Both the position numbers and the translations under genes were made by a program. This document shows, piece after piece, positions 7,444-40,013 of a DNA stretch of 64,000 bases; position 1 is the stretch's first letter, and the number at the start of each line of letters is the position of its first letter. The stretch is from Microcella alkaliphila (GTDB lineage Bacteria; Actinomycetota; Actinomycetes; Actinomycetales; Microbacteriaceae). The DNA lies in assembly GCF_002355395.1 (NCBI RefSeq), contig NZ_AP017315.1, positions 868,001-932,000 of the forward strand. The letters are read 5' to 3'. The notes under the pieces were generated by a model. The model had not been told where the DNA came from. It did no database searches and was given only the letters and a program-made list of their open reading frames with translations.

Positions 7444-7763
7444 CCGTCGAAGGACTCTCTCCCATGACCAAGGTCGAGGTGGTGGTGCGCTCGACCGACG
7501 CCGACGCCGTCTCGCGCCAGATCGTCAGCGCGGGCGCAACCGGCTACACGAGCCTGCCCGGTGTGACCGGACTCGGGCACCACGGAGCCCACGACGGGCG
7601 TGCTCTCTTCAACGACCAGGATGCTCTCACGCTGACGATCACGGTCGTTCCCGACGACCGCGCCCCCGCTCTGATCGCGGGCCTGCGCGAACTGCTCGAG
7701 CGGCGGCCCGGCGTGATGTTCGTCTCGACCGTGTCGGTGAGCCGCCCCCACTACTTCCAGTAG
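7440..7763 (+). CDS. PII-like small protein of the dab operon
   Basis: This 107-residue protein has the alternating beta-alpha-beta pattern of the PII/GlnB-like fold: KVEVVVRSTDADAVSRQI, a short loop with GVTGLGHHGAHDGRALF at the T-loop position, then LTLTITVVPDD and a helix-strand ending in VSTVSVSRP. PII-like proteins are known beside bicarbonate transporters, where they bind nucleotides and gate transport. The same role for DabAB is inferred. Its ATG overlaps the dabA stop (ATGA) and a GGAGG lies upstream, so it is the third gene of the operon. There is no uridylylation tyrosine as in GlnB. It could also be a diverged DUF3240-type protein. Confidence 0.65.
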   Translation: MTVEGLSPMTKVEVVVRSTDADAVSRQIVSAGATGYTSLPGVTGLGHHGAHDGRALFNDQDALTLTITVVPDDRAPALIAGLRELLERRPGVMFVSTVSVSRPHYFQ

Positions 7764-7778
7764 GGGCGGCTAGGCCGC
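7741..7778. terminator. Hairpins between the convergent dab operon and fumC
   Basis: GCCGCCCC at 7741-7748 pairs with GGGGCGGC at 7763-7770, with a further ACT/AGT pairing inside. An alternative hairpin, GCGGC-TAG-GCCGC, lies at 7766-7778. There is no T-run, as is common in high-GC actinobacteria. The site overlaps the end of the PII-like gene and lies just before the fumC stop on the other strand, so it may serve both. Confidence 0.45.
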
Positions 7779-7781
7779 AGG

Positions 7782-9188
7782 CTAGAGGCCGGGCGAGGTC
7801 ATCGAGAGCACGTCGAGCAGCTCGTCGAGCTGCTGCTCGGTGATCTCGCCGCGCTCGACGAAGCCGAGGTCGATGACGGCCTCGCGCACGGTGAGCCCCG
7901 TGGCGACCGAGTGCTTGGCGACCTTCGCCGCGGCCTCGTAGCCGATGACGCGGTTCAACGGAGTCACGATCGAGGGCGACGACTCGGCGAGCGCACGCGC
8001 GCGGTCGAGGTTCGCCTCCAGCCCCCGCACGGTCTTGTCTGCGAGCACACGGGTCGAGTTCGCGAGTAGTCGGATCGACTCGAGCAGCGAGGTTCCCATG
8101 ACGGGGATGGCCACGTTCAGCTCGAACGAGCCCGATGCGCCGGCCCAGGCGATGGTCGCATCGTTGCCGACGACCTTCGCGCACACCATGAGCACGGCCT
8201 CGGGTACGACGGGGTTGACCTTGCCCGGCATGATCGACGAGCCCGGCTGCAGGTCGGGAATGTGCAGCTCGGCAAGGCCGGTGTTGGGACCAGAGCCCAT
8301 CCAGCGCAGGTCGTTGCAGATCTTTGTCAGCGAGACGGCGATGACGCGCAGAGCGCCGCTCGCCTCGACGAGCCCGTCACGGGCGCCCTGGGCCTCGAAG
8401 TGGTCCTCGGCCTCGGTGATCGGCAGGCCGGTCGTCGAGGCGAGTTCGGCGATGACCTTCTGCGAGAAGCCGAGCGGCGTGTTGATGCCCGTGCCGGTTG
8501 CCGTGCCGCCGAGGGGTACTTCGGCGACGCGTTCGATCGTCGCCTGCACGCGGGCGATGCCGAGTCGCACCTGGCGGGCGTATCCGGCGAACTCCTGGCC
8601 GAGGGTGACCGGTGTGGCGTCCATGAGGTGTGTGCGGCCGGCTTTGACCGCGGTCTTCCACAGTTCGGCCTTTTCCTCGAGCGCCTCGGCGAGGTACTCG
8701 AGCGCCGGAATCAGATCGGCGAGGAGCGCCTCGGTGACGGCGAGGTGCACCGAGGTGGGGAACACGTCGTTCGACGACTGCGAGGCGTTCACGTGGTCGT
8801 TCGGGTGCACCGCGGTGCCGGCGTGCTGCGTGGCGAGCGTGGCGAGCACCTCGTTCATGTTCATGTTCGACGACGTGCCCGAGCCCGTCTGGTACGTGTC
8901 GACGGGGAAGTGCTCGAGGTGCGCGCCCCCGATGATCTCGTCGGCGGCGGCGACGATGCCGCGCGCGAGGGTCTCATCGAGGATTCCGAGTTCGGCGTTC
9001 ACGAGGGCCGCGGCGCGCTTGATCTGCGCGAGCGCCTTGATCTGCCCGGCCTCCAGGCGCGTGCCGGAGATGGGGAAGTTCTCGACGGCGCGCTGCGTCT
9101 GCGCGCGGTACAGCGCGCTCGTCGGCACGCGAACCTCGCCCATCGTGTCGTGCTCGATGCGGTACTCGGTCTCGGTGTTCTCGCTCAT
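7782..9188 (-). CDS. fumC: Class II fumarate hydratase
   Basis: FumC interconverts fumarate and malate in the TCA cycle, without an iron-sulfur cluster. The 468-residue length is normal. The superfamily signature [15 protein letters not shown] is intact, as are the [14 protein letters not shown] substrate segment and the [13 protein letters not shown] motif. The start is the ATG at 9188; the open frame extends upstream without a better start. It lies head-to-tail with the carbonic anhydrase gene, 58 bases downstream of it, and converges on the dab operon. Confidence 0.97.
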
Positions 9189-9246
9189 CGCGATGGTTCC
9201 GTTTCTGTAGAGAGGGAGGGGAGGTGGTGGTAGGTCTGGATGCTCG

Positions 9247-9885
9247 TCACACGGCACCGACGACGGCGTCGGCATTCACGCGGCCGTCATGCAGCTGGTA
9301 GTTGGCGCCGACGATCGCCAGACGCCCGGCGGCGACGGCTTCGCTGATGAGCTCGCTCGCGCTGAGGAGCGCCCCGACCGTGTCGCGCAGGTGCTGGCGG
9401 CCCACCTCGAACGCGTCGATGGTGTCGACGCCGGGCGAGCCCGCAGCGATGCGCACCCGCTGGACGGCCGGCATGATCTGCGTGACGAGTGAGCGGATGT
9501 GCGCGGGCAGGGTCGGAGCGTTCGGCCCGGCCTGATCGAGTGCGGCGCGGACGGCGCCGCACTCGTCGTGGGCCAGCACGACGATGAGCGGCACCTCGAG
9601 CACCGCCACGGCGTATTCGAGCGAACCGACGACGCTGTCGCTGACGATCTGGCCGGCGTTGCGCACGACAAACAGATCACCGAGGCCCTTGTCGAAGATG
9701 ATCTCGGCGGCAAGGCGACTGTCGCTGCATCCGAACAGCGCGGCGTCGGGCCGCTGGTAGCCGCTCAACTCGGTGCGACGTTCGGCGTCCTGGTGGGGGT
9801 GGCGGGGTTCGCCAGCGACGAAGCGGGCGTTGCCCTCTTCCATCTCACGCCACACTGCGGCGGGGGTGCGCTCGGCGGTCGTCAT
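9247..9885 (-). CDS. Beta-class carbonic anhydrase
   Basis: This 212-residue cytoplasmic enzyme interconverts CO2 and bicarbonate. The zinc site of the beta class is complete: C53 with D55 in [10 protein letters not shown], and the His and Cys of [18 protein letters not shown] is also typical. GAGGAG lies six bases upstream of the ATG at 9885. It sits 1.5 kb from the DabAB operon but on the opposite strand, in the group that ends with fumC. Together they would set the cytoplasmic bicarbonate level. A soluble anhydrase working beside DabAB could dissipate the accumulated bicarbonate, so the two may be used under different conditions. Confidence 0.95.
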
Positions 9886-9915
9886 GATCCTCCTCGTCGT
9901 GTCGCGACGCGACAG

Positions 9916-10563
9916 TCAGGGGGCGGTCAGCTCGCCGGCGATCGAGGTGGCGAGCAGAGTGAAGTCGGCTTCCTCTGCCGTGCCAAACAGCACGATTGTG
10001 CTGCTCTCGGTCTCGGTCACCAGTGCGTACTGGCGGTTCTCGAGCTGGCTATTCCCTCGTCGATCGTAGAGCGTCCACGTGACGCCGCCGATCTCGACCT
10101 CGTCTCCGGTGGTGCGTGGCTGACGCAACTGCTCAGCGAGCCAGGTGGGGTTGGCGTCGAAGCCCTGCAGAAGCGCGACGAAGCCGGCGCGGGTGGGCTC
10201 GGGGTCGGTGATGAATCCGACGTACCACTCGGTCACGCCGCCGGAGGCGGTGAGACCCGCGCGGTTGACCCACCAGCTGGGGGGAACAACGGGGGCGACG
10301 ATGTCGAAATCGGTTCCCGCGACCAGTTCGTCCGCGGTGGCGCGGTAGTCGATCGGCGGGGGCGTGGGGGCCTCGCGGACGACCACGACGATGAGGAAGA
10401 GCACGACGAGAAGCGATGCGGCGACCGAGAGAATCAGGTTGATCGTGGTCTGGTTGGCCCGCCGTTTCGCTCGGTTCGCGGCGACGCGGGCCGCTTTCTC
10501 TTCGGCAGTCTCGGGGCGACCGAGCTCCGCGACGATGGGGCGTCCGGTTGCCGGGTCGGTCAT
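9916..10563 (-). CDS. DUF4245 family membrane-anchored protein
   Basis: This 215-residue actinobacterial protein has a charged N-terminus (to about residue 38), one transmembrane helix ([21 protein letters not shown]), and an extracytoplasmic domain that matches DUF4245. That domain includes a WWVNRAGL segment and [11 protein letters not shown]. The function of the family is unknown. The start is the ATG at 10563, which overlaps the xseB stop (ATGA). It is therefore the third gene of xseA-xseB-DUF4245, a linkage commonly seen in actinobacteria. The gene-order association does not by itself imply a role in DNA repair. Confidence 0.85.
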
Positions 10564-10787
10564 GATGGATCGGCGGCGGCGCGCGCGGCGTCGAGCCGCT
10601 CTTTCGCGCCGATCAGCCAGGTTTCGCAGCGTCGGGCGAGGGCCTCGCCGCGCTCCCACAGGGCGATGGACTGCTCGAGTGTGGCGCCGCCCTGCTCGAG
10701 TTCGGAGACCACGCGAACGAGCTCGTCGCGAGCCTCCTCGTAGCTGAGGGTCTCGATGTCGGCCGGGGTCGCGCTCACGCTTGTCAT
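10560..10787 (-). CDS. xseB: Exodeoxyribonuclease VII small subunit
   Basis: XseB, 75 residues, binds in several copies to XseA to form exonuclease VII, which degrades single-stranded DNA into oligonucleotides. The helical hairpin [16 protein letters not shown] followed by [19 protein letters not shown] is the family signature. It starts one base after the xseA stop and ends overlapping the start of the DUF4245 gene, so the three genes are one operon. Confidence 0.95.
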
Positions 10788-10788
10788 G

Positions 10789-12039
10789 CTATTCGTCGCC
10801 TTCTGTGTCGGGGCCGGGAATGCGGGCGTCGGCGGCGATCGCGCCGTCGGCGAGGGTCACGCGCAGCCGTGCGCCGTCGACGACGTCGGAGGCGGCGCGT
10901 AGCACCGCACCGTCGGCCGTCTGAACGATGGCGTACCCGCGGTCGAGGGTCGACTGCGGCGAGAGCGAGCGCAGGCGAGCGCGCCGTTCGGCCAATTCGT
11001 CGCCAGCGCGCTCGATGCGGCGCTCGGTGAGCTCGGCGCCGCGGGCGACCAGCCGGGTGAGCTCGTCGGCGCGCGCATCGATGATCCATTCGGCGCCTGC
11101 GAGCACCGGGCGCGATCGCAGCTGGGCTAGGCGCTCGACCTCGGTGCGCACCTGCAGGGTGATGCGGGAGCGCAGACGCGTGCGGGCCTGGTCGACGCGC
11201 GAGAGCTCGTCGCCGACATCGGGAACGACGCGCTTCGCGGCGTCGGTCGGCGTGGATGCACGCAGGTCGGCGACATCGTCGAGGAGGGGGCGGTCGTTTT
11301 CGTGGCCGATTGCACTCACGACGGGCGTGGAGCAGGCGGCGACGGCGCGCACGACCCGCTCATCGCTGAACGGAAGCAGATTCTGAAAGTCGCCGCCTCC
11401 GCGCGCCACGATGATGACGTCGACGTCGGGGTCGGCATCGAGCGCCTCGATGGCGGCGACGAGTTCGCCGACCGCGCGGTCACCCTGCACGGCCGAGTGC
11501 TGCACGCGGAACGCGACCGATGGCCAGCGCAGGGCCGCGTTGCGCAGCACATCCTTTTCAGCATCGCTGTCTTTGCCCGTGACGAGCCCGATCAGACTCG
11601 GCAGGAAGGGGAGCGGATTCTTGCGCGCCGCGTCGAAAAGCCCCTCGGCGCGCAGGCTCTGCCGCAGCCGCTCAAGGCGTTCGAGCAGGTCGCCGAGGCC
11701 CACCCGTCGCACGTCGAAGACCTGCATCGTCAGGCTGCCGCCCTTGACCCACCAGTTGGCCTTGACGTGCATCACCACGCGGTCGCCCTGGCTGACGCCC
11801 TCGGGGATGCGTGAGCGCACTGACGACCAGATCACGAACGAGACGGTCGCGTCGGCGCTGAGGTCTTTGAGCTTGCCGTAGACGTTGCCGCCCGAGACGC
11901 CCCACTGGGTGATCTCGCCCTCGACCCAGACGGCGCCGAGCCGGTCGATCCACCCCTTGAGCTTCTGGGACAGCTCGGCGACGGGCCACGGCGCGTCGGC
12001 ACTGGTCGGCGCGGGCGTCACCGGAGCGGCGTCGGTCAT
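10789..12039 (-). CDS. xseA: Exodeoxyribonuclease VII large subunit
   Basis: XseA, about 416 residues, is the catalytic subunit of exonuclease VII. The N-terminal OB-fold ([22 protein letters not shown]) binds single-stranded DNA. The catalytic core includes [36 protein letters not shown] and [13 protein letters not shown], followed by a long coiled-coil region and a C-terminal [12 protein letters not shown] segment. The ATG at 12039 has GGAG four bases upstream. It faces the ABC transporter genes across a 114-base divergent region. This is a typical stand-alone DNA repair operon. Confidence 0.96.
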
Positions 12040-12153
12040 GGATCTCCGGTTTCCTCGACGGGGTGGCATCGCACTTGCGGCCAGGGTGGGCGCTCGCCAG
12101 GGTAGTAGATGGCCCCGACACCGCCGGTGTTCGCGTGAGCCGATGGGGGACGA

Positions 12154-13095
12154 ATGCCGACCGGAACACCGATCACGATTGAGAACCTGACGAAGCGCTA
12201 CGGCGCCGTCGCCGCCGTCGATGGCGTTTCCTTCACCGCCCAACCCGGCCGGGTCACGGGGTTCCTCGGCCCGAACGGCGCGGGAAAGACCACAACGTTG
12301 CGCGTGCTACTGGGGCTTGCGCGTGCCACATCCGGCACGGCCACATTCGGCGGCACCGCCTACGCGGCGCTCGATGATCCCGCGAGCCAGGTCGGAGCAT
12401 CCCTGTCGTCGGATGTTTTTCATCCCGGGCGAAGCGGCCGCGACCACCTGCGCGTTCTGCAGCTAGCCGCCGGCCTCGAACGCGACCGCATCGACGCGGT
12501 GCTGCAGCGCGTCGGCATGACCGATGCCGCCGACCGCCGGGTGGGCGGCTACTCCCTCGGCATGCGCCAGCGCCTCGGCCTCGCCGCCGCCCTGCTCGGC
12601 GACCCGGGAACGCTCGTGCTCGATGAGCCCATCAACGGCCTCGACCCTGCCGGCATCACGTGGATTCGCGTATTCCTGCGCGAGCTCGCCGCAGAGGGGC
12701 GCACGATCCTGCTGTCGTCGCACGTGTTGAGCGAGGTGTCGCAGACGGTGGATGACGTTGTTGTGATCGCGCGCGGACGCATCGTCATGGCGGGGGCACT
12801 CGCCGACCTCTCGGCCGGTGCCGTCGCCCGCGTGCGTGTGGACGCTGCCGACCGCAGCGCCCTCGCCTCGGCGATCGCCGCGGCCGGCGGCGTCGTCGAG
12901 ACGCCCACCGCAGGCCCCCTGGTCGTCACCGGCCTCGACGCCGACGGGGTCGGCCGCGCCGCGTTGGCGGCCGCCATTCCCCTCACGCTGCTCACCCCGC
13001 TCTCCGACGACCTCGAATCGGTCTTCCTGCGCCTCACGGCGGAACACCCCGATCCGGATGCTCGACCCGCCTCGAACGCGGAGGTCGCGGCATGA
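12154..13095 (+). CDS. ABC transporter ATP-binding protein (BcrA/DrrA type)
   Basis: This 313-residue ATPase has a full nucleotide-binding domain: Walker A GPNGAGKTTT, Q-loop region, signature YSLGMRQRLGLA, Walker B LVLDEPINGLDP and switch His in SSHVLSEV. The C-terminal 90 residues form the regulatory tail found in drug- and bacteriocin-export ATPases. It partners with the permease encoded just downstream, whose ATG overlaps its stop. GGGGGA precedes the start. The substrate cannot be deduced; the family exports antibiotics, lipids or peptides. Confidence 0.92.
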   Translation: MPTGTPITIENLTKRYGAVAAVDGVSFTAQPGRVTGFLGPNGAGKTTTLRVLLGLARATSGTATFGGTAYAALDDPASQVGASLSSDVFHPGRSGRDHLRVLQLAAGLERDRIDAVLQRVGMTDAADRRVGGYSLGMRQRLGLAAALLGDPGTLVLDEPINGLDPAGITWIRVFLRELAAEGRTILLSSHVLSEVSQTVDDVVVIARGRIVMAGALADLSAGAVARVRVDAADRSALASAIAAAGGVVETPTAGPLVVTGLDADGVGRAALAAAIPLTLLTPLSDDLESVFLRLTAEHPDPDARPASNAEVAA

Positions 13096-13916
13096 GCGCC
13101 CTCACGCGCGCCGTCGCCGCGGAACTGGTTCGCGTCTTCTCGCTGCGCACCTGGTGGGTGCTCGCCGTGGTGCTCGTGCTCTACGTCGGGGTCACCGCGG
13201 GCGGCTTCGCCTTCTTCGTGACCGCCGAGACGGAGGGCGGCCCCGGTCCGCTTCCCGCCGAGGTGGCCACGCAGCTGGTCTACAGCTCGACCACGAGCGT
13301 CGCCCTCGTCATTCCCCTGCTGTTCGGGGCGCTCGCCGCGACGAGCGAGTACCGCTGGCGCACTCTCACCCCCACGTTCCTGGCCCAGCCGCGTCGCCCG
13401 GTCGTCCTGTTCGGGCGCCTTGTCGTGGCACTGCTCGTCGGCGCACTCTATGGCGTGATCGGCGCGCTCACGTCGGTTGCCGTAGGTGCCGCCGTGCTCG
13501 CGGCAAACGGCGTCGACACCCTGCTCGGCGATCCCGACGTGCTCGGCTTGCTTGCTCGCACCGTGCTTGCCTGCGCCCTGTGGTCGCTTCTCGGACTGGG
13601 CTTGGGGGCCCTCTTGACCAGCCAGATCGCGGCCATCGTCATTGTGCTCGTCTTCACGCAGTTCGTGGAGCCGATCCTGCGCATCGTCGCCGGCGCCTGG
13701 GAGTGGTCGGCAGAGCTCGCCCGCTATCTCCCGGGTGCGGCCACCGACTCGCTCGTCGGTGCCGGCATCATCGCCTCCATCGGCCAGCTTGATCCCACCG
13801 TGCCGGGCGTGATCGAGCCGCTCACCCGACTCGAGGGGGGCCTTGTGTTGACCGCCCTGAGCGTGCTGCTCGTCGCGGTCGCGGCCGTGACCACCCTCCG
13901 CCGCGACGTTGAGTAG
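13092..13916 (+). CDS. ABC-2 type transporter permease
   Basis: This 274-residue membrane protein starts inside the stop of the ATPase gene (ATGA) and is its translocation partner. About six hydrophobic helices are seen (for example WWVLAVVLVLYVGVTAGGF and VALVIPLLFGALAATSEY). The TSEYRWRTLTPTFL motif is typical of the permeases of BcrAB-like and multidrug exporters. The pair probably works as a homodimer of both subunits in the membrane. No regulator is encoded next to it. Confidence 0.88.
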   Translation: MSALTRAVAAELVRVFSLRTWWVLAVVLVLYVGVTAGGFAFFVTAETEGGPGPLPAEVATQLVYSSTTSVALVIPLLFGALAATSEYRWRTLTPTFLAQPRRPVVLFGRLVVALLVGALYGVIGALTSVAVGAAVLAANGVDTLLGDPDVLGLLARTVLACALWSLLGLGLGALLTSQIAAIVIVLVFTQFVEPILRIVAGAWEWSAELARYLPGAATDSLVGAGIIASIGQLDPTVPGVIEPLTRLEGGLVLTALSVLLVAVAAVTTLRRDVE

Positions 13917-13966
13917 GGCCGCGCGCACGCGCATCCCCTATCAGGGGCGAATTCAGGGCCGACCCG

Positions 13967-13972
13967 TAGACT
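13967..13972 (+). promoter_or_regulatory. Leaderless -10 element of ispH
   Basis: TAGACT lies seven bases before the ATG at 13980, which places the transcription start at or next to the start codon. There is no ribosome-binding sequence between them. The same spacing is seen before many genes in this window. Confidence 0.6.
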
Positions 13973-13979
13973 CGACCCG

Positions 13980-15056
13980 ATGTCCACGATCACGAACGGC
14001 ACCCTCGGCCAGACGCTGACCGCGCCCGTCATTCCTGAGCGTCGCGAGCGGCTCACCCCGGTCGACGTCGACCGCCCCAAGCGCGTGCTGCTGGCCGCGC
14101 CGCGCGGCTACTGCGCCGGCGTCGACCGCGCCGTCATCGCCGTTGAGAAAGCACTCGAGCAGTACGGTGCGCCGGTCTACGTGCGCAAGCAGATCGTGCA
14201 TAACGTGCACGTCGTCAGCGAACTCGAGAAGGCCGGCGCGATCTTCGTCGACGAGGTCGACGAGGTGCCCGAGGGCTCGCACATCGTATTTTCGGCCCAC
14301 GGTGTGAGCCCCGCTGTCGTGAAGGGCGCGGCAGACCGCGAGCTGCAGGCCATCGACGCCACCTGCCCGCTCGTGACAAAAGTGCACCGGGAGGCCGTGC
14401 GGTTCTCGAAGCAGGACTACTGGATCCTCCTGATCGGTCACGAGGGCCACGAAGAGGTCGAAGGCACGATGGGGCACGCCCCCGAGCGCACCATTCTCGT
14501 GAACGACCCCGACGAGGCCGACCGCATCGAGGTGCCCGAGACCGAGAACCTCATCTGGTTGTCGCAGACCACGCTCTCGGTCGACGAGACGATGGAGACC
14601 GTGCGTCGCCTGCGCGACCGGTTCCCGCACCTGAAGGACCCGCCCAGCGACGACATCTGCTACGCGACGCAGAACCGTCAGGTGGCGATCAAGAAGGTCG
14701 CTCCTGACGCCGATCTCGTCATCATTGTCGGCTCGTCCAACAGCTCGAACAGCGTGCGTCTCGTCGAGGTCGCGCTGGAATACGGGGCGAAGGCGGCGTA
14801 CCGCATCGACTACGCCAGCGAGATTCGACAGGAGTGGTTCGAGGGCGTCGCGAGCGTCGGGGTGAGCTCGGGTGCGAGCGTTCCCGAGGTGCTTGTCGAG
14901 CAGGTGCTCGCCGACCTGCGTGATGCAGGGTTTGAGAACGTCGAGATTGTGAAGACCGCAGAGGAAGATCTGATGTTCTCGCTGCCGAAGGAACTCCGAA
15001 CGAACGCCACGGGAGAGCGCGACGAGCGCGCCCTTGGCGGTCGCACCCGGAGCTGA
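13980..15056 (+). CDS. ispH: 4-hydroxy-3-methylbut-2-enyl diphosphate reductase
   Basis: IspH is the last enzyme of the MEP pathway, reducing HMBPP to IPP and DMAPP with a [4Fe-4S] cluster. The three cluster cysteines are present in [18 protein letters not shown] and [10 protein letters not shown]. The catalytic Glu region ([12 protein letters not shown]) and the SSNSSNS substrate loop are also intact. At 358 residues it is slightly longer than Escherichia coli IspH, with an N-terminal extension and a charged tail. It is probably transcribed without a leader. The first kinase gene begins about 20 bases downstream. It supplies isoprenoid precursors for the UppS-type enzyme encoded at the left edge. 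Confidence 0.97.
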
Positions 15057-15075
15057 GGCGATAGGGCGCCGGGCA

Positions 15076-16317
15076 GTGCCGTCCGATCAGGTGCCCTCCG
15101 CGCCGCCGAGCGAGACGTTCGCGTCCTTGCCCGCGCCCCGGGGGGTGACGGCGGCGGGCCTCGTTCGAGGGCTCAGCGCCGCCATGCGGTGGATCGGGCC
15201 CGTGTCGGTACTGCTGGTGCTTGCCGTGATCGGCGAGACGGCTGTCGTGCTCGAGCACGGCCCCGCGTCCGTGCCGCTCGTGCTGACACTGCTTCCCGTC
15301 CTCGTCACGTCGCTGGCACTCGCCGTCCGCCCGAGCGTCGTCACGATGGTGACGCACCTCGGCGTGGGGCTCACCATCGGCACGGCGTATGCAGCGCTGG
15401 CCACCTCCTTCGCCGCACCACTCGGGGATCGCTCGGGCTTCCTGGTCGAGGGCGCTGCCGTCGCGCTGATCTTTGTCGGGGCGCTCGGCACCCGTGGCGT
15501 GGGTGGCATCGGCTGGATCCTCGCGGGGCTGGGCGTGGGAACGGTCGCCATCGCGCTCGGCGCCGTCATCGCGGGGGAGACGCCCCGGTTCTCGCCCGAC
15601 CGCATCATCGATGCGTTCATCATGATGTTCGCCTTCGCCGTTGTGGACATCGGGTGGCGGCGCAGCGGTGGCCGCCTGCCCGCTTTTCGCGATCTCGCCC
15701 GCGAGACGCGTCGAGCCGACGAGCGCCGACGCCGTGAACGTTCGGCCGCCGCTGTCGTGCACGACACCGTCCTGTCCGATCTCGCCGCCATCGCACACGG
15801 CGACGGCACCCTCGATGAGGGGATGCGCGCGCGCATCCGTACGGATCTCACGCGCTTGGAGGGGGCGAGCACCAGCGACACCGGTACCGTTTCGATTCTG
15901 CCCCGGGAGGGCACTTTCGGTCGCGCCCTGCTGGGCCTCGTCGAGGATTACCGTTGGCGAGGAGGCCGCATCGACCTGGTGGGAACGGATCTGCTGACCG
16001 ACGACGCCCTCGCGCCCGTCGTTGCGGAGGCGTTGCACTCGGCCGTCGCGGCGACGCTCGACAATGTGCGCCGCCACGCGTCGGCCACCCACGTCGAGCT
16101 GACGCTCGGGGGAGACGATGACCGCCTCACAGTGCTCATCGTCGATGACGGCCTCGGCTTCGACGTCGACGCGGTCGCCATCGACCGTCTGGGTCTCCGC
16201 GAGTCGATCATCGGACGCATGGAGCGCGCCGGAGGGTCCGCCAGGATCTGGTCGTCGGAAGCCGGTACGACGGTGCTGCTGTCGGGCCCCCGCGCAACCG
16301 CGGAGGCCGAACGATGA
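15076..16317 (+). CDS. Membrane histidine kinase (HisKA_3-like), module copy 1
   Basis: About six N-terminal membrane helices occupy the first 180 residues. A charged linker and a dimerisation helix with the phospho-acceptor AAAVVHDTVLSDLAAIA (His near residue 230) follow, then a GHKL ATPase domain. N box TLDNVRRHA, G1 DDGLGFD and G2 RLGLRESI are all intact, as in NarL/DesK-type kinases. GTG 15076 is preferred because TAGGGC precedes it and because a TTG at 15034 would overlap ispH. The next gene starts inside its stop (ATGA). No response regulator is encoded nearby, so its output is unknown. It is paralogous to the gene at 17506. Confidence 0.8.
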   Translation: MPSDQVPSAPPSETFASLPAPRGVTAAGLVRGLSAAMRWIGPVSVLLVLAVIGETAVVLEHGPASVPLVLTLLPVLVTSLALAVRPSVVTMVTHLGVGLTIGTAYAALATSFAAPLGDRSGFLVEGAAVALIFVGALGTRGVGGIGWILAGLGVGTVAIALGAVIAGETPRFSPDRIIDAFIMMFAFAVVDIGWRRSGGRLPAFRDLARETRRADERRRRERSAAAVVHDTVLSDLAAIAHGDGTLDEGMRARIRTDLTRLEGASTSDTGTVSILPREGTFGRALLGLVEDYRWRGGRIDLVGTDLLTDDALAPVVAEALHSAVAATLDNVRRHASATHVELTLGGDDDRLTVLIVDDGLGFDVDAVAIDRLGLRESIIGRMERAGGSARIWSSEAGTTVLLSGPRATAEAER

Positions 16318-17459
16318 CCCTCTGGTGGCGGCGCTCGGCGAACGAGGTCGACACGCTCAGCTGGCTGACCGCTTCGCTCGTGACCGCCTGGGTCCCTGTG
16401 CTGATCGTGGTTCTCGGTGCTGGCGCGGTGCTGGTCGGCGGGCAAGGCGCCGATGCGCCTAGCTTCCAGTGGGCGGCCGTGGCACTGGCCGCCCTGGCGA
16501 CCGGTGCGATCCATCTTGCGGCGCGCCCCACCCGTCGACGTTTCGGAACGGCGACGGCGATCGTCGTCGCCGTATTGGCGAGTTCGGCGGTTCTCGTCAG
16601 CGGATGGGGCATCGCGCGAGGGGGCCAGGGAGGCGCCGGCGAGCTCGTGCCCGAGTTGTGGTGGGCTCCAGTCGCGGTTGCGCTCGTCGTCATGTCGCTC
16701 AGCCCGTTCGTTCCCGGTCGCGTCTTCCTGCCCGCCGGAGCGATGGTTGCCGGTGCCAGCGTGCTGGGTGCTGCATTCGCGACAGAGCCGCTCGCGGCCG
16801 TCTCTCCCGGAGCGGAGGTGGTGATCGCCGCGTCCTCACCGCTGTTCGCGCTCATCGGCGGCACCTTCCTCACGCGCGCGCTCATCGATGAAGTGCAGGG
16901 CTGGCGCTCGGGCATCGTCGACACCATCGCGGCGCCGCCCGCGCGCGAGAAGGCCGTGTCGATCGTGGACCGCACCACGCACGGGGTGCTCAGCACGGAC
17001 GCAATGCCCTTTCTGCGGGCCATCGCCGATGGCGCGCCGGTGGACGCCGCCACGCGCGCGCGGGCGGCCGAACTTGCGACCGAGCTGCGCACCGCGCTCA
17101 TCGACCGTGAGGGCAGCGGCTGGCTCGGGGCCGTCGTTGCCACCCGGGCGGTGCACGTCACCGACCCGCACCGCCTTGCTGATCGCGTCTCCCTCGACCA
17201 GCGCGCGGCGATCCTCGCGCTCATCGACGGGGTGTTCTCCGACCAGACCGCCGGCGTGTATGCCGCGCGGCTGGAACTGGCTCCGGGTGGGGAGGGGAAC
17301 GTCGCTGTGGCGCTCACGCTCGATCTTGAGTTGCCGGAGGGGCGCCGCACCGCGGTGTTGGCCCCGTACTACCTGAGCGCTAAATCGGTCGTGCGCGACA
17401 TCTCGTGGACCAACGGACGCTCGCTCGTCGTCCGCTTCGGCGTCGACGGCGAGCGGTAG
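16314..17459 (+). CDS. Kinase-like membrane partner protein, module copy 1
   Basis: This 381-residue protein has an N-terminal half of about five to six membrane helices and a cytoplasmic C-terminal half. The first part of the cytoplasmic half resembles a dimerisation hairpin (STDAMPFLRAIADG, then RARAAELATELR) but lacks the His-Asp-Thr acceptor. The rest ends in SLVVRFGVDG at the place where a GHKL domain would end, but no N, G1 or G2 box is present. I read it as a degenerate kinase. It is coupled to the kinase gene by an ATGA overlap. The protein at 18689 is its paralogue, sharing LPEGRR, LAPYY and VRDI motifs in the same order. Function is inferred only. Confidence 0.6.
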   Translation: MTLWWRRSANEVDTLSWLTASLVTAWVPVLIVVLGAGAVLVGGQGADAPSFQWAAVALAALATGAIHLAARPTRRRFGTATAIVVAVLASSAVLVSGWGIARGGQGGAGELVPELWWAPVAVALVVMSLSPFVPGRVFLPAGAMVAGASVLGAAFATEPLAAVSPGAEVVIAASSPLFALIGGTFLTRALIDEVQGWRSGIVDTIAAPPAREKAVSIVDRTTHGVLSTDAMPFLRAIADGAPVDAATRARAAELATELRTALIDREGSGWLGAVVATRAVHVTDPHRLADRVSLDQRAAILALIDGVFSDQTAGVYAARLELAPGGEGNVAVALTLDLELPEGRRTAVLAPYYLSAKSVVRDISWTNGRSLVVRFGVDGER

Positions 17460-35642: not shown

Positions 35643-35683
35643 ACCGTAACCCGCGCATCCGGGCACCCACCCGAAGGTAGGCT
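35643..35683. promoter_or_regulatory. Divergent ggt/ychF leaderless promoters
   Basis: TACGGT on the minus strand (35648-35643) is six bases from the ggt-like ATG, and TAGGCT on the plus strand (35678-35683) is eight bases from the ychF GTG. The whole regulatory space between the two genes is 55 bases. Confidence 0.5.
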
Positions 35684-35691
35684 TGCCCCCC

Positions 35692-36765
<1,074 letters not shown>

Positions 36766-36814
36766 CAGCGTGGTCTTGCGACTCGTTGTCGACGCCGCGC
36801 AATCGTTTGTCATG

Positions 36815-38212
36815 TCAGATGGCCGGCGCATTCTCGGCGATCCGCGAGCCAACGAGTTCGTGAACGACCGCGTCGAGCTCCCATAGCCATCCTGGATGCC
36901 CGCTTTCTGCCGAGAGCGTCTTGGCCGCCCACGGGTACCACTTCCACTGCGCTTTCTGCACAGGATCGGTCGGGATGAAACGCCCATAGTGCGCGGCGGC
37001 GTTCCGCCGCCCATACACTGCCCGAATGAAGGCATAAAGGTCGCCGCCGTCGGGCCATTGGCGCCCGGCGAGGCTGCCTGATCTGACAAGTTCGAACACG
37101 CGAGGAGCGGCTTGGCTTGTTGTGCCCCCCTCCGGCCACTGGGAGCCGTCGTCGAGGAACACTTTCGCGCCGTCAGGGATCTCGTTGATCGCTATCGTTT
37201 CGAGAACGGCCCAGAGCTTGAAGTATCTAGAGTCTTCCTGCTTCTCGCGTCGGGCTTCGAGATAGAGATTGACATACAACTCCACTTCGGGTGCCGCAGC
37301 GATTGCGCCGCCAACACGGAGGACCTCGCGAGAGCTTTCACCGCCCATGAATCCGCCGATGAGGTTCCCGGGGTCGCTTTTGCGGAGGTTTCGGAAGCGG
37401 ATGTGTTGTGGCGCACGGCGCTCGAGTGCGACCATGATTGGCCGGGGTGCCGCGTATCGCAGGTAAGCGAGGGCGAGCACGAGCTTGTCTGTCTCGGCCA
37501 TAGCGAGAGCATCGGCTTCGGTCTCGTCTTCTGCCCAGATCTGCGGGAACTCGAACACCGCGAAGTCGTTGCGGCGAAGTTGTTGATTCCATGCTTCGTC
37601 ATCGACGCGTCCTGGCCATATAAGACGCTCGAGGGAGGCATTTATGAGATCACGAAGGTCGCCGTCGTTGACCTCGAGCATCTGCGGGTGCACGACGCCG
37701 TGGGTGGTCGGGATCTGCTGGGTGATCAGTAACCCTTCGATGAAGACGGCCGCACGGAACTGAGAGCCCTGACCGGCCGTGCCGAGTGGTTGATTGAATC
37801 GTGCCTCTCTCCGCCTTTGCAGGTCCAGGTACAAGTCGACGACCTTGTCACTCGCCGTTTTCGGTGAGTTCAGTGCTGTCATCGACACGAACTCGGGATA
37901 GACGACTTCCTGCGCGAGCGGAGGTTGCTTTGACGAGGGATCAAACGGCGGCGGTGCGATCCCGGCCGCCGAGACGAAGACGACGCATTCGCGGTCGATC
38001 TCGAATCCGGAAGCGTGGTGCCAGCTTCCTGTGCCGTCGTCCCCGATCTCCATTGAGAATGACATCGCCATCATCAGCGGTTCGATGTCGTCACTCGATT
38101 CGATCTGCACACTGATGGTCGTATTCGACCACTCCGGCGCATCGTTGACGAAAACGGTGAACGGTTGCCCCATCTCGAGGACATAGGGCTCGATCCGAGC
38201 ATTAAAGGTCAC
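36815..38212 (-). CDS. Putative HEPN-like protein of a defence-type island
   Basis: This 465-residue protein has no recognised full-length homologue. The first 120 residues look beta-rich. A central helical part follows (about 130-310). The C-terminal 110 residues read like a HEPN domain: a helix DSRYFKLWAVLETIAI and, about 65 residues later, YGRRNAAAHYGRF. That contains R-x4-H, the catalytic motif of HEPN ribonucleases. ApeA and several abortive-infection proteins share this plan. The GTG start overlaps the TGA of a small upstream ORF. Base composition is visibly lower in GC than the neighbours. A defence or toxin role is inference from motif and context. Confidence 0.5.
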   Translation of the reverse strand: MTFNARIEPYVLEMGQPFTVFVNDAPEWSNTTISVQIESSDDIEPLMMAMSFSMEIGDDGTGSWHHASGFEIDRECVVFVSAAGIAPPPFDPSSKQPPLAQEVVYPEFVSMTALNSPKTASDKVVDLYLDLQRRREARFNQPLGTAGQGSQFRAAVFIEGLLITQQIPTTHGVVHPQMLEVNDGDLRDLINASLERLIWPGRVDDEAWNQQLRRNDFAVFEFPQIWAEDETEADALAMAETDKLVLALAYLRYAAPRPIMVALERRAPQHIRFRNLRKSDPGNLIGGFMGGESSREVLRVGGAIAAAPEVELYVNLYLEARREKQEDSRYFKLWAVLETIAINEIPDGAKVFLDDGSQWPEGGTTSQAAPRVFELVRSGSLAGRQWPDGGDLYAFIRAVYGRRNAAAHYGRFIPTDPVQKAQWKWYPWAAKTLSAESGHPGWLWELDAVVHELVGSRIAENAPAI

Positions 38213-38385
38213 TCTTGGACGTTACCAACATCGCACTGCTCCGGGATGCTGACAGTGTCACGGGCCACGGCATCCACCCGCATTAGCAGGCTCCGCATCG
38301 TGGTGATGCCTTTCAGCAACGTAACCCGGTCGAGTTCCGCTTCAACTTGTAGCGCGCGTTGGCACCTCGAAAAAGAACGACCCAT
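38209..38385 (-). CDS. Small ORF coupled to the HEPN-like gene
   Basis: This 58-residue frame starts at ATG 38385 and ends in a TGA that overlaps the GTG of the HEPN-like gene (GTGA). The product is mostly helical, with VEAELDRVTLLKGITTMR and a second helix RSLLMRVDAVARDTV. It has no recognised domain. Overlapping stop and start codons suggest translational coupling. It could be an antitoxin or regulator of the downstream gene. The frame is short and stays open further upstream, so it could also be chance. Confidence 0.35.
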   Translation of the reverse strand: MGRSFSRCQRALQVEAELDRVTLLKGITTMRSLLMRVDAVARDTVSIPEQCDVGNVQE

Positions 38386-38478
38386 CCCGGGTTGAGTCGG
38401 TGGTTGCCAGTAGCGTGACAGCAGCGCGCTTGCGCGACCGCTGTGCCGGAGCGGCTTCCTCCAACAGTTGGGTGATCC

Positions 38479-39432
38479 GTGTCTACTACTCCGGGAATTG
38501 AGCTCTACCGATCCGCGACGGGCCAAGTCGAGCTCGCTGTCAGAGCCGACGGCCGAAACGTTTGGCTGACCAGGGCGCAACTGGCCACGCTATTTGGTCG
38601 AGACGTGAAGACGATCGGCAAGCACGTGGCTAATGCCCAAAACGAAGAACTCGATGGCATGTCAACTGTCGCAAAATTTGCGACAGTTCAGTCCGAAGGC
38701 GGTCGTGAGGTAACTCGCCAGGTCGAGCACTACAACCTCGACATGGTTCTCTCCGTCGGCTACCGGGTGAAGTCACCGGAAGGCATTCACTTCCGGCGCT
38801 GGGCGACCACCGTTCTCCACCAGTACGTCCTTGATGGCGTGGCGTTCGACGCGCGACGCCTCGAACAGCTCGGCTCAATCGTCCGGGTGCTCTCGCGCTC
38901 AACGGATGAGTTGGTTGCCGGCGTCGCTGAGGTCGTCGACCGCTACCTGCCGAGCCTCCGCTCTCTCCGCGCCTACGACGAGGGTGACATCCCCACCTCT
39001 GGAGGCTCAGCACCAACGTGGCAACTGACCTACGACGAAACTCGCGCGCTCATCGACCAGGTCGGTGAAGAGTTTCCGGCCGACACCCTATTCGGCGGTG
39101 AGCGCGGTGACGCGCTTCGCAGCGTCATCGCGACCTTGTACCAAGGGTTCGGCGGCGTTGAGCTCTATCCGAGCGTCGAACTCAAAGCCGCCAACCTTCT
39201 GTACCTCGTTGTAAAGGATCACCCGCTCACCGACGGCAACAAACGCAGTGCGGCAGCTCTGTTCGTCCACTTCCTGCAACGCAACGGGATGCTGATCGAC
39301 GCCAACGGCGAATCGCGCGTCTCGAACAACGCGCTCGCGGCGATCACCCTCATGGTCGCAATGAGCGACCCGAAGGAGAAAGAGCTGATGATCGCCCTGA
39401 TCGCCAGCATGCTCTCCAGCGAAGGCGAATAG
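38479..39432 (+). CDS. RhuM-Doc (Fic/DOC) fusion protein
   Basis: This 317-residue protein fuses two domains. Residues 1-125 match the Virulence_RhuM family: VWLTRAQLATLFGRDVKTIGKHV, a DNA-binding-like helix pair, then YNLDMVLSVGYRVKSPEG and FRRWATTVLHQYVLDGVAF. The C-terminal half is a Fic/DOC domain with the motif HPLTDGNKRSAAALF. The K-R ending is like Doc toxins, which phosphorylate EF-Tu, rather than AMPylating Fic proteins. The start is a GTG with no clear ribosome site. It is divergent from the HEPN-like gene and lies in the same lower-GC block, so it probably belongs to a mobile or defence-related unit. Its target is unknown. Confidence 0.85.
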   Translation: MSTTPGIELYRSATGQVELAVRADGRNVWLTRAQLATLFGRDVKTIGKHVANAQNEELDGMSTVAKFATVQSEGGREVTRQVEHYNLDMVLSVGYRVKSPEGIHFRRWATTVLHQYVLDGVAFDARRLEQLGSIVRVLSRSTDELVAGVAEVVDRYLPSLRSLRAYDEGDIPTSGGSAPTWQLTYDETRALIDQVGEEFPADTLFGGERGDALRSVIATLYQGFGGVELYPSVELKAANLLYLVVKDHPLTDGNKRSAAALFVHFLQRNGMLIDANGESRVSNNALAAITLMVAMSDPKEKELMIALIASMLSSEGE

Positions 39433-39437
39433 CCCCG

Positions 39438-40013
39438 CTACGCGCTGAGTTCCTCCCGCAGGCGCGGTTCGACCCGGTTCGCCGGCACCGCCCCCGACTT
39501 GTCGGCGTAGAACGCGCGGATGCGGTCCATGTCGGCCGGGATGTCGCCCGTTAGCTCGAACGTCGGCCCGAGCCCGATCGTCATCGTCGTGCGGTCCACG
39601 TAGCCGAGCGTCACCGGCAGCCCGGTCTCCCGCGCGATCCGGTAGAAGCCGGACTTCCAGTGCGAGTGACCCTTGCGCGTGCCGTCTGGCGTGACGACCA
39701 GGCCAAACACCTCGCCGGAGCGTATGCGGTCGACCACTTCCTGCACGACGCGACCGGGAGCATCCCGGTCGACGGGGATACCGCCCCAGCTGCGCATGAT
39801 GGGCCCGCGCCAGCCGCGGAACAGGCTCTTTTTGCCGAGCCATCGAATGTGCATGTCGAGTTTCCAGGCGATGCCGAGCATGAAGACGAAGTCCCAGTTC
39901 GACGTGTGCGGGGCGCCGATCAGTACGGTCGGGCGATCGGGCGCGGCCTCGGTGACGAGCTTCCAGCGGCTGAACGTCCAGAACAGGCGGGCGACGAGGC
40001 GGCGTACGAACAC
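39438..40013 (-). CDS. PlsC-like 1-acyl-sn-glycerol-3-phosphate acyltransferase
   Basis: This 191-residue protein has the glycerolipid acyltransferase motifs: GAPHTSNWDFVF (H-x4-D catalytic pair), LFRGWRGPIMRSWGGIPVDR, and TPDGTRKG (P-E/D-G-T-R substrate site). It is shorter than typical PlsC and belongs to the small acyltransferase group, so its acyl acceptor is uncertain. The GTG at 40013 follows a TAGGCT element (minus strand, 40025-40020) by six bases, indicating a leaderless mRNA. It is divergent from a VOC gene and is the first conserved gene after the island. Confidence 0.88.
   Translation of the reverse strand: MFVRRLVARLFWTFSRWKLVTEAAPDRPTVLIGAPHTSNWDFVFMLGIAWKLDMHIRWLGKKSLFRGWRGPIMRSWGGIPVDRDAPGRVVQEVVDRIRSGEVFGLVVTPDGTRKGHSHWKSGFYRIARETGLPVTLGYVDRTTMTIGLGPTFELTGDIPADMDRIRAFYADKSGAVPANRVEPRLREELSA

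What the first reader, a model, noticed from the sequence alone, without database searches (positions are those of the whole stretch)
36815..39432. Lower-GC island with a HEPN-like protein, a coupled small ORF and a RhuM-Doc fusion
Between ychF and a plsC-like gene lies a block with visibly lower GC. On one strand is a 465-residue protein ending in a helix pair with R-x4-H, the catalytic motif of HEPN RNases, preceded by a short ORF whose TGA overlaps its GTG. Divergent from it is a RhuM domain fused to a Doc-like domain (HPLTDGNKR). HEPN and Fic/Doc proteins are recurrent parts of anti-phage and toxin systems. The combination could be an undescribed defence unit; that is inference.
Basis: partly seen in the sequence, partly recalled or inferred. 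Interest (0 to 1): 0.72.

Follow-up and report, generated by a model that had tools for sequence, protein, structure and literature searches.

The report
Hitchhiking HEPN gene cassette at ychF
A predicted RNA-cutting phage-defence gene sits alone on a small DNA cassette that has slotted into the end of the housekeeping gene ychF, a spot where related bacteria collect many different small cassettes, apparently using integration sites like those of phages.

Summary
RhuM-Doc is a real fusion (PADLOC candidate PDC-S23). The small ORF is judged not a gene, and the two proteins are not a unit: no RhuM relative at 6 of 6 other HEPN loci, no HEPN gene at any of 23 sister ychF loci, 6 of which carry RhuM-Doc.

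The HEPN gene is a single-gene cassette of about 1.6 kb between direct repeats of the ychF 3' end (36742, 38329); it replaced the last ychF codons. The same cassette sits at ychF in Microbacterium and Curtobacterium. A near-identical sister is empty. In the window's family 36 of 398 genomes hold two or more same-strand repeat cores, and fetched loci show arrays of small units.

Distal repeats carry arms resembling viral sites beside large serine recombinases (window 22/30; control maximum 18/30 in 4,400). In genome G304 such a recombinase ends a roughly 24-kb ychF island. I read the cassette as an integrase-less element inserted in trans, carrying an ApeA/Tha-like anti-phage RNase. Mobility, agent and defence are inferred; 18 of 23 sister loci show no second core.

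The parts
35683..36765 (+). ychF (host GTPase); its last codons, FRFSN-stop, are read as supplied by the inserted cassette (20 of 23 sister loci end FRFNV-stop)
36742..36759 (+). att core copy 1 (attL), GTCGAGTTCCGTTTCAGC, at the ychF 3' end
36760..38328 (.). HEPN cassette body between the two att cores; similarity to the cassettes of L003 and L004 stops inside these limits
36815..38212 (-). 465-aa protein: N-terminal Ig-like beta-sandwich, mixed middle part, C-terminal HEPN domain; dN/dS about 0.185 between hosts
37868..38212 (-). residues 1-115: Ig-like beta-sandwich (predicted model)
36818..37327 (-). residues about 296-465: HEPN helical domain (predicted model)
36989..37006 (-). R403-N-A-A-A-H408, the R-x4-H motif
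   Evidence: R and H kept in 22 of 23 family members, in all 7 rows of A3 and in a prophage relative
38299..38328 (+). left (P-like) arm of att copy 2; 22 of 30 bases match the arm beside the serine-recombinase gene of viral contig L094
38329..38346 (+). att core copy 2 (attR), GTCGAGTTCCGCTTCAAC, followed by a genus-like ychF end (FRFNL-stop)
38209..38580 (-).
38479..39432 (+). RhuM-Doc fusion (PADLOC PDC-S23); older resident of the ychF-plsC gap, independent of the cassette
39220..39246 (+). HPLTDGNKR, Doc/Fic-type motif
39438..40013 (-). plsC-like acyltransferase, far border of the hotspot

Best explanation
The HEPN gene is the only cargo of a cassette of about 1.6 kb with no integrase of its own. 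The cassette carries a phage-type attP. An integrase acting in trans, most likely a large serine recombinase of the kind found beside the same core in viral contigs, inserted it into the ychF 3' end (attB). The insertion split the site into attL (ychF with new last codons) and attR (38329), and the same process builds arrays of small cassettes at ychF in related genomes. The cargo is most likely a stand-alone abortive-infection RNase: the beta-rich N-terminal part senses infection and the C-terminal HEPN domain, using R403 and H408, then cuts RNA. RhuM-Doc is a separate, older defence candidate next door. Shown by sequence: boundaries, repeats, replaced ychF end, empty site, the same cassette in other genera, motif conservation. 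Predicted: HEPN and Ig-like folds. Inferred: the serine recombinase as the agent, present mobility, RNase activity, phage sensing.
For: Repeats of the ychF end flank the gene. 20 of 23 sister ychF genes end FRFNV; the window's ends FRFSN and a genus-like end lies beyond the HEPN gene; sister L064 shows the same pattern (ychF end FRFQATSGQK, FRFNV end at a second core). Near-identical sister G014 is empty, under 20 bp from ychF to plsC. HEPN cassette at ychF in L003 (third interval) and L004 (first interval). Same DNA starting exactly at a core at different array positions: L073 core 2 and L088 core 1 (two genera), 87%; L074 core 3 and L087 core 1 (one genus), 95%. 36 of 398 family genomes hold 2 or more same-strand cores, reversed control 0. 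Distal arms match serine-recombinase sites: 11 of 41 at 18/30 or more, against 1 of 4,400 control 30-mers. Serine recombinases confirmed by Pfam beside the core in L092, L094, L095, L098. In G304 a relative (43%) starts 10-64 bp from a core with a matching arm, about 24 kb behind ychF. HEPN: 13 of the 15 best structural matches are HEPN proteins; R and H kept in 22 of 23; dN/dS 0.185. Defence setting: AbiD-type gene, Type I enzyme and Type ISP enzyme at ychF in other genomes; a relative in a prophage next to terminase.
Confidence: 0.6

Rival explanations
1. One reading: HEPN protein, small ORF and RhuM-Doc form one undescribed defence unit.
For: They are neighbours in one low-GC stretch; PMC3710099 (passages seen) lists the PrrC/RloC-type HEPN family as often found with RhuM-like or Fic/Doc-like genes.
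Against: No RhuM relative at 6 of 6 other HEPN-family loci; no HEPN at 23 of 23 sister ychF loci, 6 of them with RhuM-Doc; an att copy separates the two; the small ORF spans that att copy.
Confidence: 0.04
2. The cassettes are remnants of prophages or larger islands integrated at ychF that lost everything but one or a few genes by deletion; they were never mobile as small units.
For: Larger elements do integrate at this end: the roughly 24-kb G304 island with serine recombinase and Type ISP enzyme, L070 with a frame-broken tyrosine integrase and a HTH_17 protein, viral contigs L092-L098.
Against: The HEPN unit has the same limits and orientation in three genera at different array positions; whole units recur at other positions beginning exactly at the core; independent deletions would hardly stop each time at an intact att.
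Confidence: 0.25
3. A tyrosine recombinase, not a serine one, moves the cassettes (integron-like or phage integrase in trans).
For: Tyrosine integrases lie beside the core in L070, L091, L098, L100; some cassette sites contain an imperfect inverted repeat (CGGAACTC-GGTG-GAGTTCCG in L074, seen by eye); the window's genome has 4 PF00589 matches.
Against: Left arms of the cassettes match the serine-recombinase sites, while L091 and L100 arms match the host ychF side instead; the nearest PF00589 match in the window's genome is about 257 kb away.
Confidence: 0.25
4. The HEPN protein is not an anti-phage effector but a toxin or RNA-processing enzyme kept for stabilising the cassette or for host stress response.
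For: HEPN proteins serve many roles (PMC3710099, passages); no PADLOC match; array cargo is broad.
Against: Large N-terminal part and no antitoxin-like partner gene found; relatives in a prophage beside terminase and in Agromyces loci with a NACHT protein and a DUF6791-ThiF protein.
Confidence: 0.3

Closest known systems
ApeA (HEPN anti-phage protein with a beta-rich N-terminal domain)
   Same: Beta-rich N-terminal part followed by a C-terminal HEPN domain with R-x4-H; a source names the Agromyces relative P0021 'ApeA N-terminal domain-containing protein'
   Different: No Pfam match to any ApeA model; profile comparison with PF18739 hits aligns only 21 columns round the motif, probability 1.9
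Tha, tail-activated HEPN system of S. aureus prophages (PMC11087260)
   Same: C-terminal HEPN with RN-x3-H in one protein, RNase, phage-carried (abstract and passages)
   Different: Tha-1 has 301 residues and no discernible N-terminal domain; no sequence comparison was made here
PDC-S23 (PADLOC candidate; RhuM-Doc)
   Same: Near full-length match of the neighbouring protein, E 1.7e-132
   Different: Only a candidate defence family; not part of the HEPN cassette
Staphylococcal and enterococcal cassette chromosomes (SCC, ECC)
   Same: Direct-repeat att sites, multiple attR copies, large serine recombinases (ECC: abstract, outline and section 10 seen; SCC details otherwise recalled)
   Different: Units here are mostly 0.4-3.6 kb (exceptions 6.1 and 11.0 kb) and mostly without a recombinase; target is ychF
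Mobile integrons and CIMEs (recalled)
   Same: Arrays of small, integrase-less units each bounded by a recombination site; mixed cargo
   Different: Site is the ychF 3' end; no integron integrase at the locus; arms resemble viral serine-recombinase sites; attC not tested

Membership tests
HEPN superfamily | HEPN helical fold | tested here: met
HEPN superfamily | conserved R-x4-6-H | tested here: met
   R403 and H408 in 22 of 23 family members (P0019 is out of register there), 7 of 7 rows of A3, RNDVAH in prophage relative P0024
HEPN superfamily | RNase activity | not testable with these tools
   no experiment
ApeA | match to HEPN_Apea (PF18739) or an ApeA N-terminal model | tested here: not met
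   no such Pfam match at E up to 1 or up to 10 for 5 relatives and the 7 rows of A3; hhalign probability 1.9
ApeA | beta-rich N-terminal region of about 300 residues plus C-terminal HEPN | tested here: met
   predicted model, strands between residues 4-114 and 150-275, HEPN from about 296; feature as given in PMC3710099 (passages)
HEPN/MNT toxin-antitoxin | adjacent MNT antitoxin gene | tested here: not met
   the three neighbouring ORFs scanned (small ORF, RhuM-Doc, plsC) give no nucleotidyltransferase match
PDC-S23 (RhuM-Doc) | full-length match to the PADLOC models | tested here: met
   residues 7-314 of 317, E 1.7e-132
SCC/ECC cassette chromosome | own large serine recombinase (ccr) in the element | tested here: not met
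   the cassette's only sizeable gene is the HEPN gene; no PF07508 in the window's genome
SCC/ECC cassette chromosome | direct-repeat att sites at the end of a conserved gene, with multiple attR | tested here: met
Integron | integron integrase at the array | tested here: not met
   no PF00589 match near the locus in the window's genome, nearest about 257 kb
Integron | attC recombination sites | not tested
   no attC model was run
CIME (cis-mobilizable element) | flanked by attL and attR, no recombination genes, mobilised in trans | tested here: inconclusive
   anatomy fits; mobilisation not testable here

The most novel reading that the evidence does not exclude
The ychF 3' end in this actinobacterial family is the base of an integron-like cassette system built on phage large serine recombinases: small units, often with one or two genes (HEPN RNase, AbiD-type, NUDIX, GNAT and others), carry an attP, ride on integrases of ychF-specific phages or islands, and accumulate in arrays, each insertion rewriting the last codons of ychF.
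Probability: 0.45. Interest if true: 0.8.

Novelty: new variant of a known kind. Interest (0 to 1): 0.62.

Why it matters
If right, a lone anti-phage gene can move between genera as a unit of about 1.6 kb without any mobility gene, by borrowing phage or island integrases. That would give a simple route for spreading defence genes outside classic defence islands. Because array limits can be read from sequence, the ychF gap becomes a place to look for new defence and accessory genes, and an excision or recombination assay can test the idea directly. The HEPN protein itself adds a one-gene candidate with an Ig-like N-terminal part.

Tried and rejected
One unit of HEPN + small ORF + RhuM-Doc: rejected on co-occurrence. 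ApeA membership: sequence tests failed; architecture alone is not enough. The whole-model fold search was filled by Ig-like folds and said nothing of the HEPN part, so the domain was folded alone. The 465-aa query found no genome contigs relative by its own words; the alignment A2 found 6. Viral contigs gave no HEPN relative, plasmids none, phages one at 26%. PDB sequence searches with the protein and with the profile gave nothing of use. The 10 PF07508 loci fetched from the genus (L107-L116, of 13 matches) have no core within 2 mismatches, so no ychF-specific serine recombinase was found in the window's genus. A second core was sought in 23 sister loci and found in 5. RhuM-Doc: no core at its far end, so its own way of arrival is unexplained. 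Literature: searches listed no paper that describes ychF 3'-end cassettes or arrays; for 46 only 15 of 603 hits and for 94 only 12 of 24 were listed. The related item seen is a pneumococcal prophage attB between a DUF951 gene and ychF (PMC8637289, passages). The library holds open-licence papers only.
Full report
What is there. The stretch 36766-39437 has GC 0.609 against 0.684 for the window; only 2 of 614 windows of the same size are as low, and both overlap it. It lies between ychF (35683-36765, plus) and a plsC-like acyltransferase (39438-40013, minus). It holds a 465-aa ORF on the minus strand (36815-38212) and a 317-aa RhuM-Doc ORF on the plus strand (38479-39432). The latter matches Pfam RhuM (1.3e-23) and Fic (1e-8) and PADLOC candidate PDC-S23 over residues 7-314 (1.7e-132).

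Not ApeA by test. No ApeA Pfam model matches. A profile of five PF18739 hits from five genomes of the same phylum aligned with A3 over 21 columns only, round RN..H, at probability 1.9. The architecture, a beta-rich N-terminal region before a C-terminal HEPN, is that of ApeA as given in PMC3710099 (passages). The working analogy is to ApeA and to Tha, a HEPN RNase of staphylococcal prophages triggered by tail proteins (PMC11087260, abstract and passages).

A cassette in the ychF 3' end. blastn of the region against the relatives showed repeated copies of the ychF end. In the window the core GTSGAGTTYCGNTTYARC occurs on the plus strand at 36742 and 38329 and nowhere else on that strand in 64 kb within two mismatches. 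Of 23 sister ychF loci of the same genus, 20 end FRFNV-stop and three end FRFQATSG(N)QK-stop. The window's ychF ends FRFSN-stop, and a genus-like end (FRFNL-stop) stands beyond the HEPN gene. That is what insertion into the ychF 3' end leaves: the element supplies the new last codons. Sister L064 shows the same picture, with an FRFQATSGQK end on ychF and an FRFNV end at a second core 372 bp on. Sister G014 (ychF 97% identical) has fewer than 20 bp between ychF and plsC. Sister G006 (98%) has another gene in the place of HEPN; it resembles the L086 gene that matches NUDIX, and its DNA becomes alignable with the window again about 40 bp behind the window's second core and runs on through a broken RhuM-Doc. 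Against the model, no distal core was found in G006 even at four mismatches, and in 18 of 23 sister loci no second core appears within two mismatches (reversed-pattern control 0 in 313 kb). HEPN is absent from 23 of 23 sister loci, from 59 of 59 other genomes in a first survey and from 397 of 397 other genomes of the family sample; some genomes are in both samples.

The same cassette elsewhere. Microbacterium halimionae (L003) and Curtobacterium sp. MCBD17_032 (L004) carry the HEPN gene behind ychF, in the same orientation, between two cores: third interval of a five-core array in L003, first interval in L004. Similarity is 86% and 78% at DNA level and stays inside the cores.

Arrays. Of 398 genomes of the window's family 275 have an exact core match and 36 have two or more on one strand (counted by me in the table); the reversed-pattern control is 0 in the rows shown. 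Coordinates were printed for 17 of the 36; in 15 the copies lie on one contig, neighbours no more than 11 kb apart; in two they lie on different contigs. I fetched those 15, plus five others without two same-strand exact cores. Intervals run mostly from 0.4 to 3.6 kb, with 6.1 and 11.0 kb as exceptions. Whole units recur at different positions: DNA starting exactly at core 2 of L073 equals that starting at core 1 of L088 (87%) and of L078/L079 (73%), in another genus; core 3 of L074 equals core 1 of L087 (95%, 700 bp), within one genus. Cargo named by Pfam in 20 array proteins (one without a match): GNAT, HATPase-DUF4325, an IS transposase, LON-substrate domain, MerR, AAA_33, HepT-GNAT, hydrolases, ADH, glyoxalase, methyltransferase, HTH, NUDIX, DUF6414. 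PADLOC on 39 array proteins plus the window's two showed 25 of 55 families; AbiD is in L072 and a partial DrmA match is the HATPase protein two intervals from HEPN in L003. So the array is a general store that includes defence genes. Behind ychF in other genomes lie a Type I restriction system (L118; hsdM and hsdR by PDB matches) and, in G304, an island of about 24 kb with a Type ISP enzyme related to LlaBIII.

The likely agent. A scan of viral contigs for the core with its following codons gave 10 loci. In four (L092, L094, L095, L098) a large serine recombinase (Resolvase plus Recombinase) starts within 70 bp. In L091 and L100 a tyrosine integrase starts within 90 bp, and L098 has one on the other side; L093 shows the same ORF as L091 and was not scanned; L096, L097 and L099 hold ychF or its end. 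The 30 bases left of distal cores were compared with the four serine-recombinase sites: mean best identity 15.4 of 30 against 9.7 (SD 2.0) for 4,400 random 30-mers of the same regions; 11 of 41 reach 18, 1 of 4,400 does; the window's copy has 22 with L094. The right arms differ little from control (12.5 against 10.4). In G304 ychF ends at C2:661468 and a serine recombinase 43% identical to that of L094 starts 10-64 bp from the core at about C2:685691, whose left arm has 19 of 30 with L094: an island at ychF with its own recombinase at the far end, followed by another small interval. The window's own genome has no such recombinase, and tyrosine integrases also use the site (L070), so the agent stays an inference.

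RhuM-Doc is separate. It lies behind ychF in 6 of 23 sister loci, broken in one, always without HEPN; 6 of 6 other HEPN loci have no RhuM relative under E 1. No second core marks its far end.

How it probably works. Shown: anatomy, boundaries, recurrence, selection on the gene. Predicted from models: Ig-like part and HEPN fold. Inferred: the N-terminal part recognises a phage product and frees or aligns a HEPN dimer that cuts RNA, stopping phage and cell. Confidence in steps: cassette at ychF 0.9; serine recombinase as agent 0.6; HEPN RNase 0.85; anti-phage role 0.6.

Known or new. HEPN defence RNases, PDC-S23 and serine-recombinase cassette chromosomes (ECC: abstract, outline and section 10 seen) are known. 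Small attP cassettes in arrays at ychF were not found in print in searches of an open-licence library (listings seen, two of them capped). I rate it a new variant of a known kind.

Noticed in passing
L117:4103-8878 and 14261-15682 (G304, ychF at C2:660401-661468): Island of about 24 kb behind ychF with its own large serine recombinase next to an att core, a Type ISP restriction enzyme related to LlaBIII/LlaGI and, by eye only, an OLD-like ATPase.
   Followed up: partly
L118:7432-13693 (G068): Type I restriction-modification genes between ychF and the first att core found (the specificity gene by eye only).
   Followed up: partly
L005 and L006 around 7592-17419 (Agromyces): A 42-43% HEPN relative sits behind a tyrosine integrase; near it a TrwC relaxase and a DUF6791-ThiF protein (scanned in L005) and a NACHT protein (scanned in L006); no ychF hit there.
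   Followed up: partly
L106:4596-6029 (MW584185 gp45): Distant HEPN relative in a Mycobacterium prophage directly before the terminase genes, R-x4-H kept.
   Followed up: partly
G000:C1:1450482-1450715: Second, partial RhuM-like match in the window's genome with a stop inside.
   Followed up: no
L073, L075, L077, L078, L086, L088: A recurring piece of about 0.3 kb shared by many cassettes, by eye near HigA-like or kinase genes; possibly a toxin-antitoxin module.
   Followed up: no
L074:7966-8607: GNAT domain followed in one ORF by a HepT-like HEPN domain inside an array interval.
   Followed up: no
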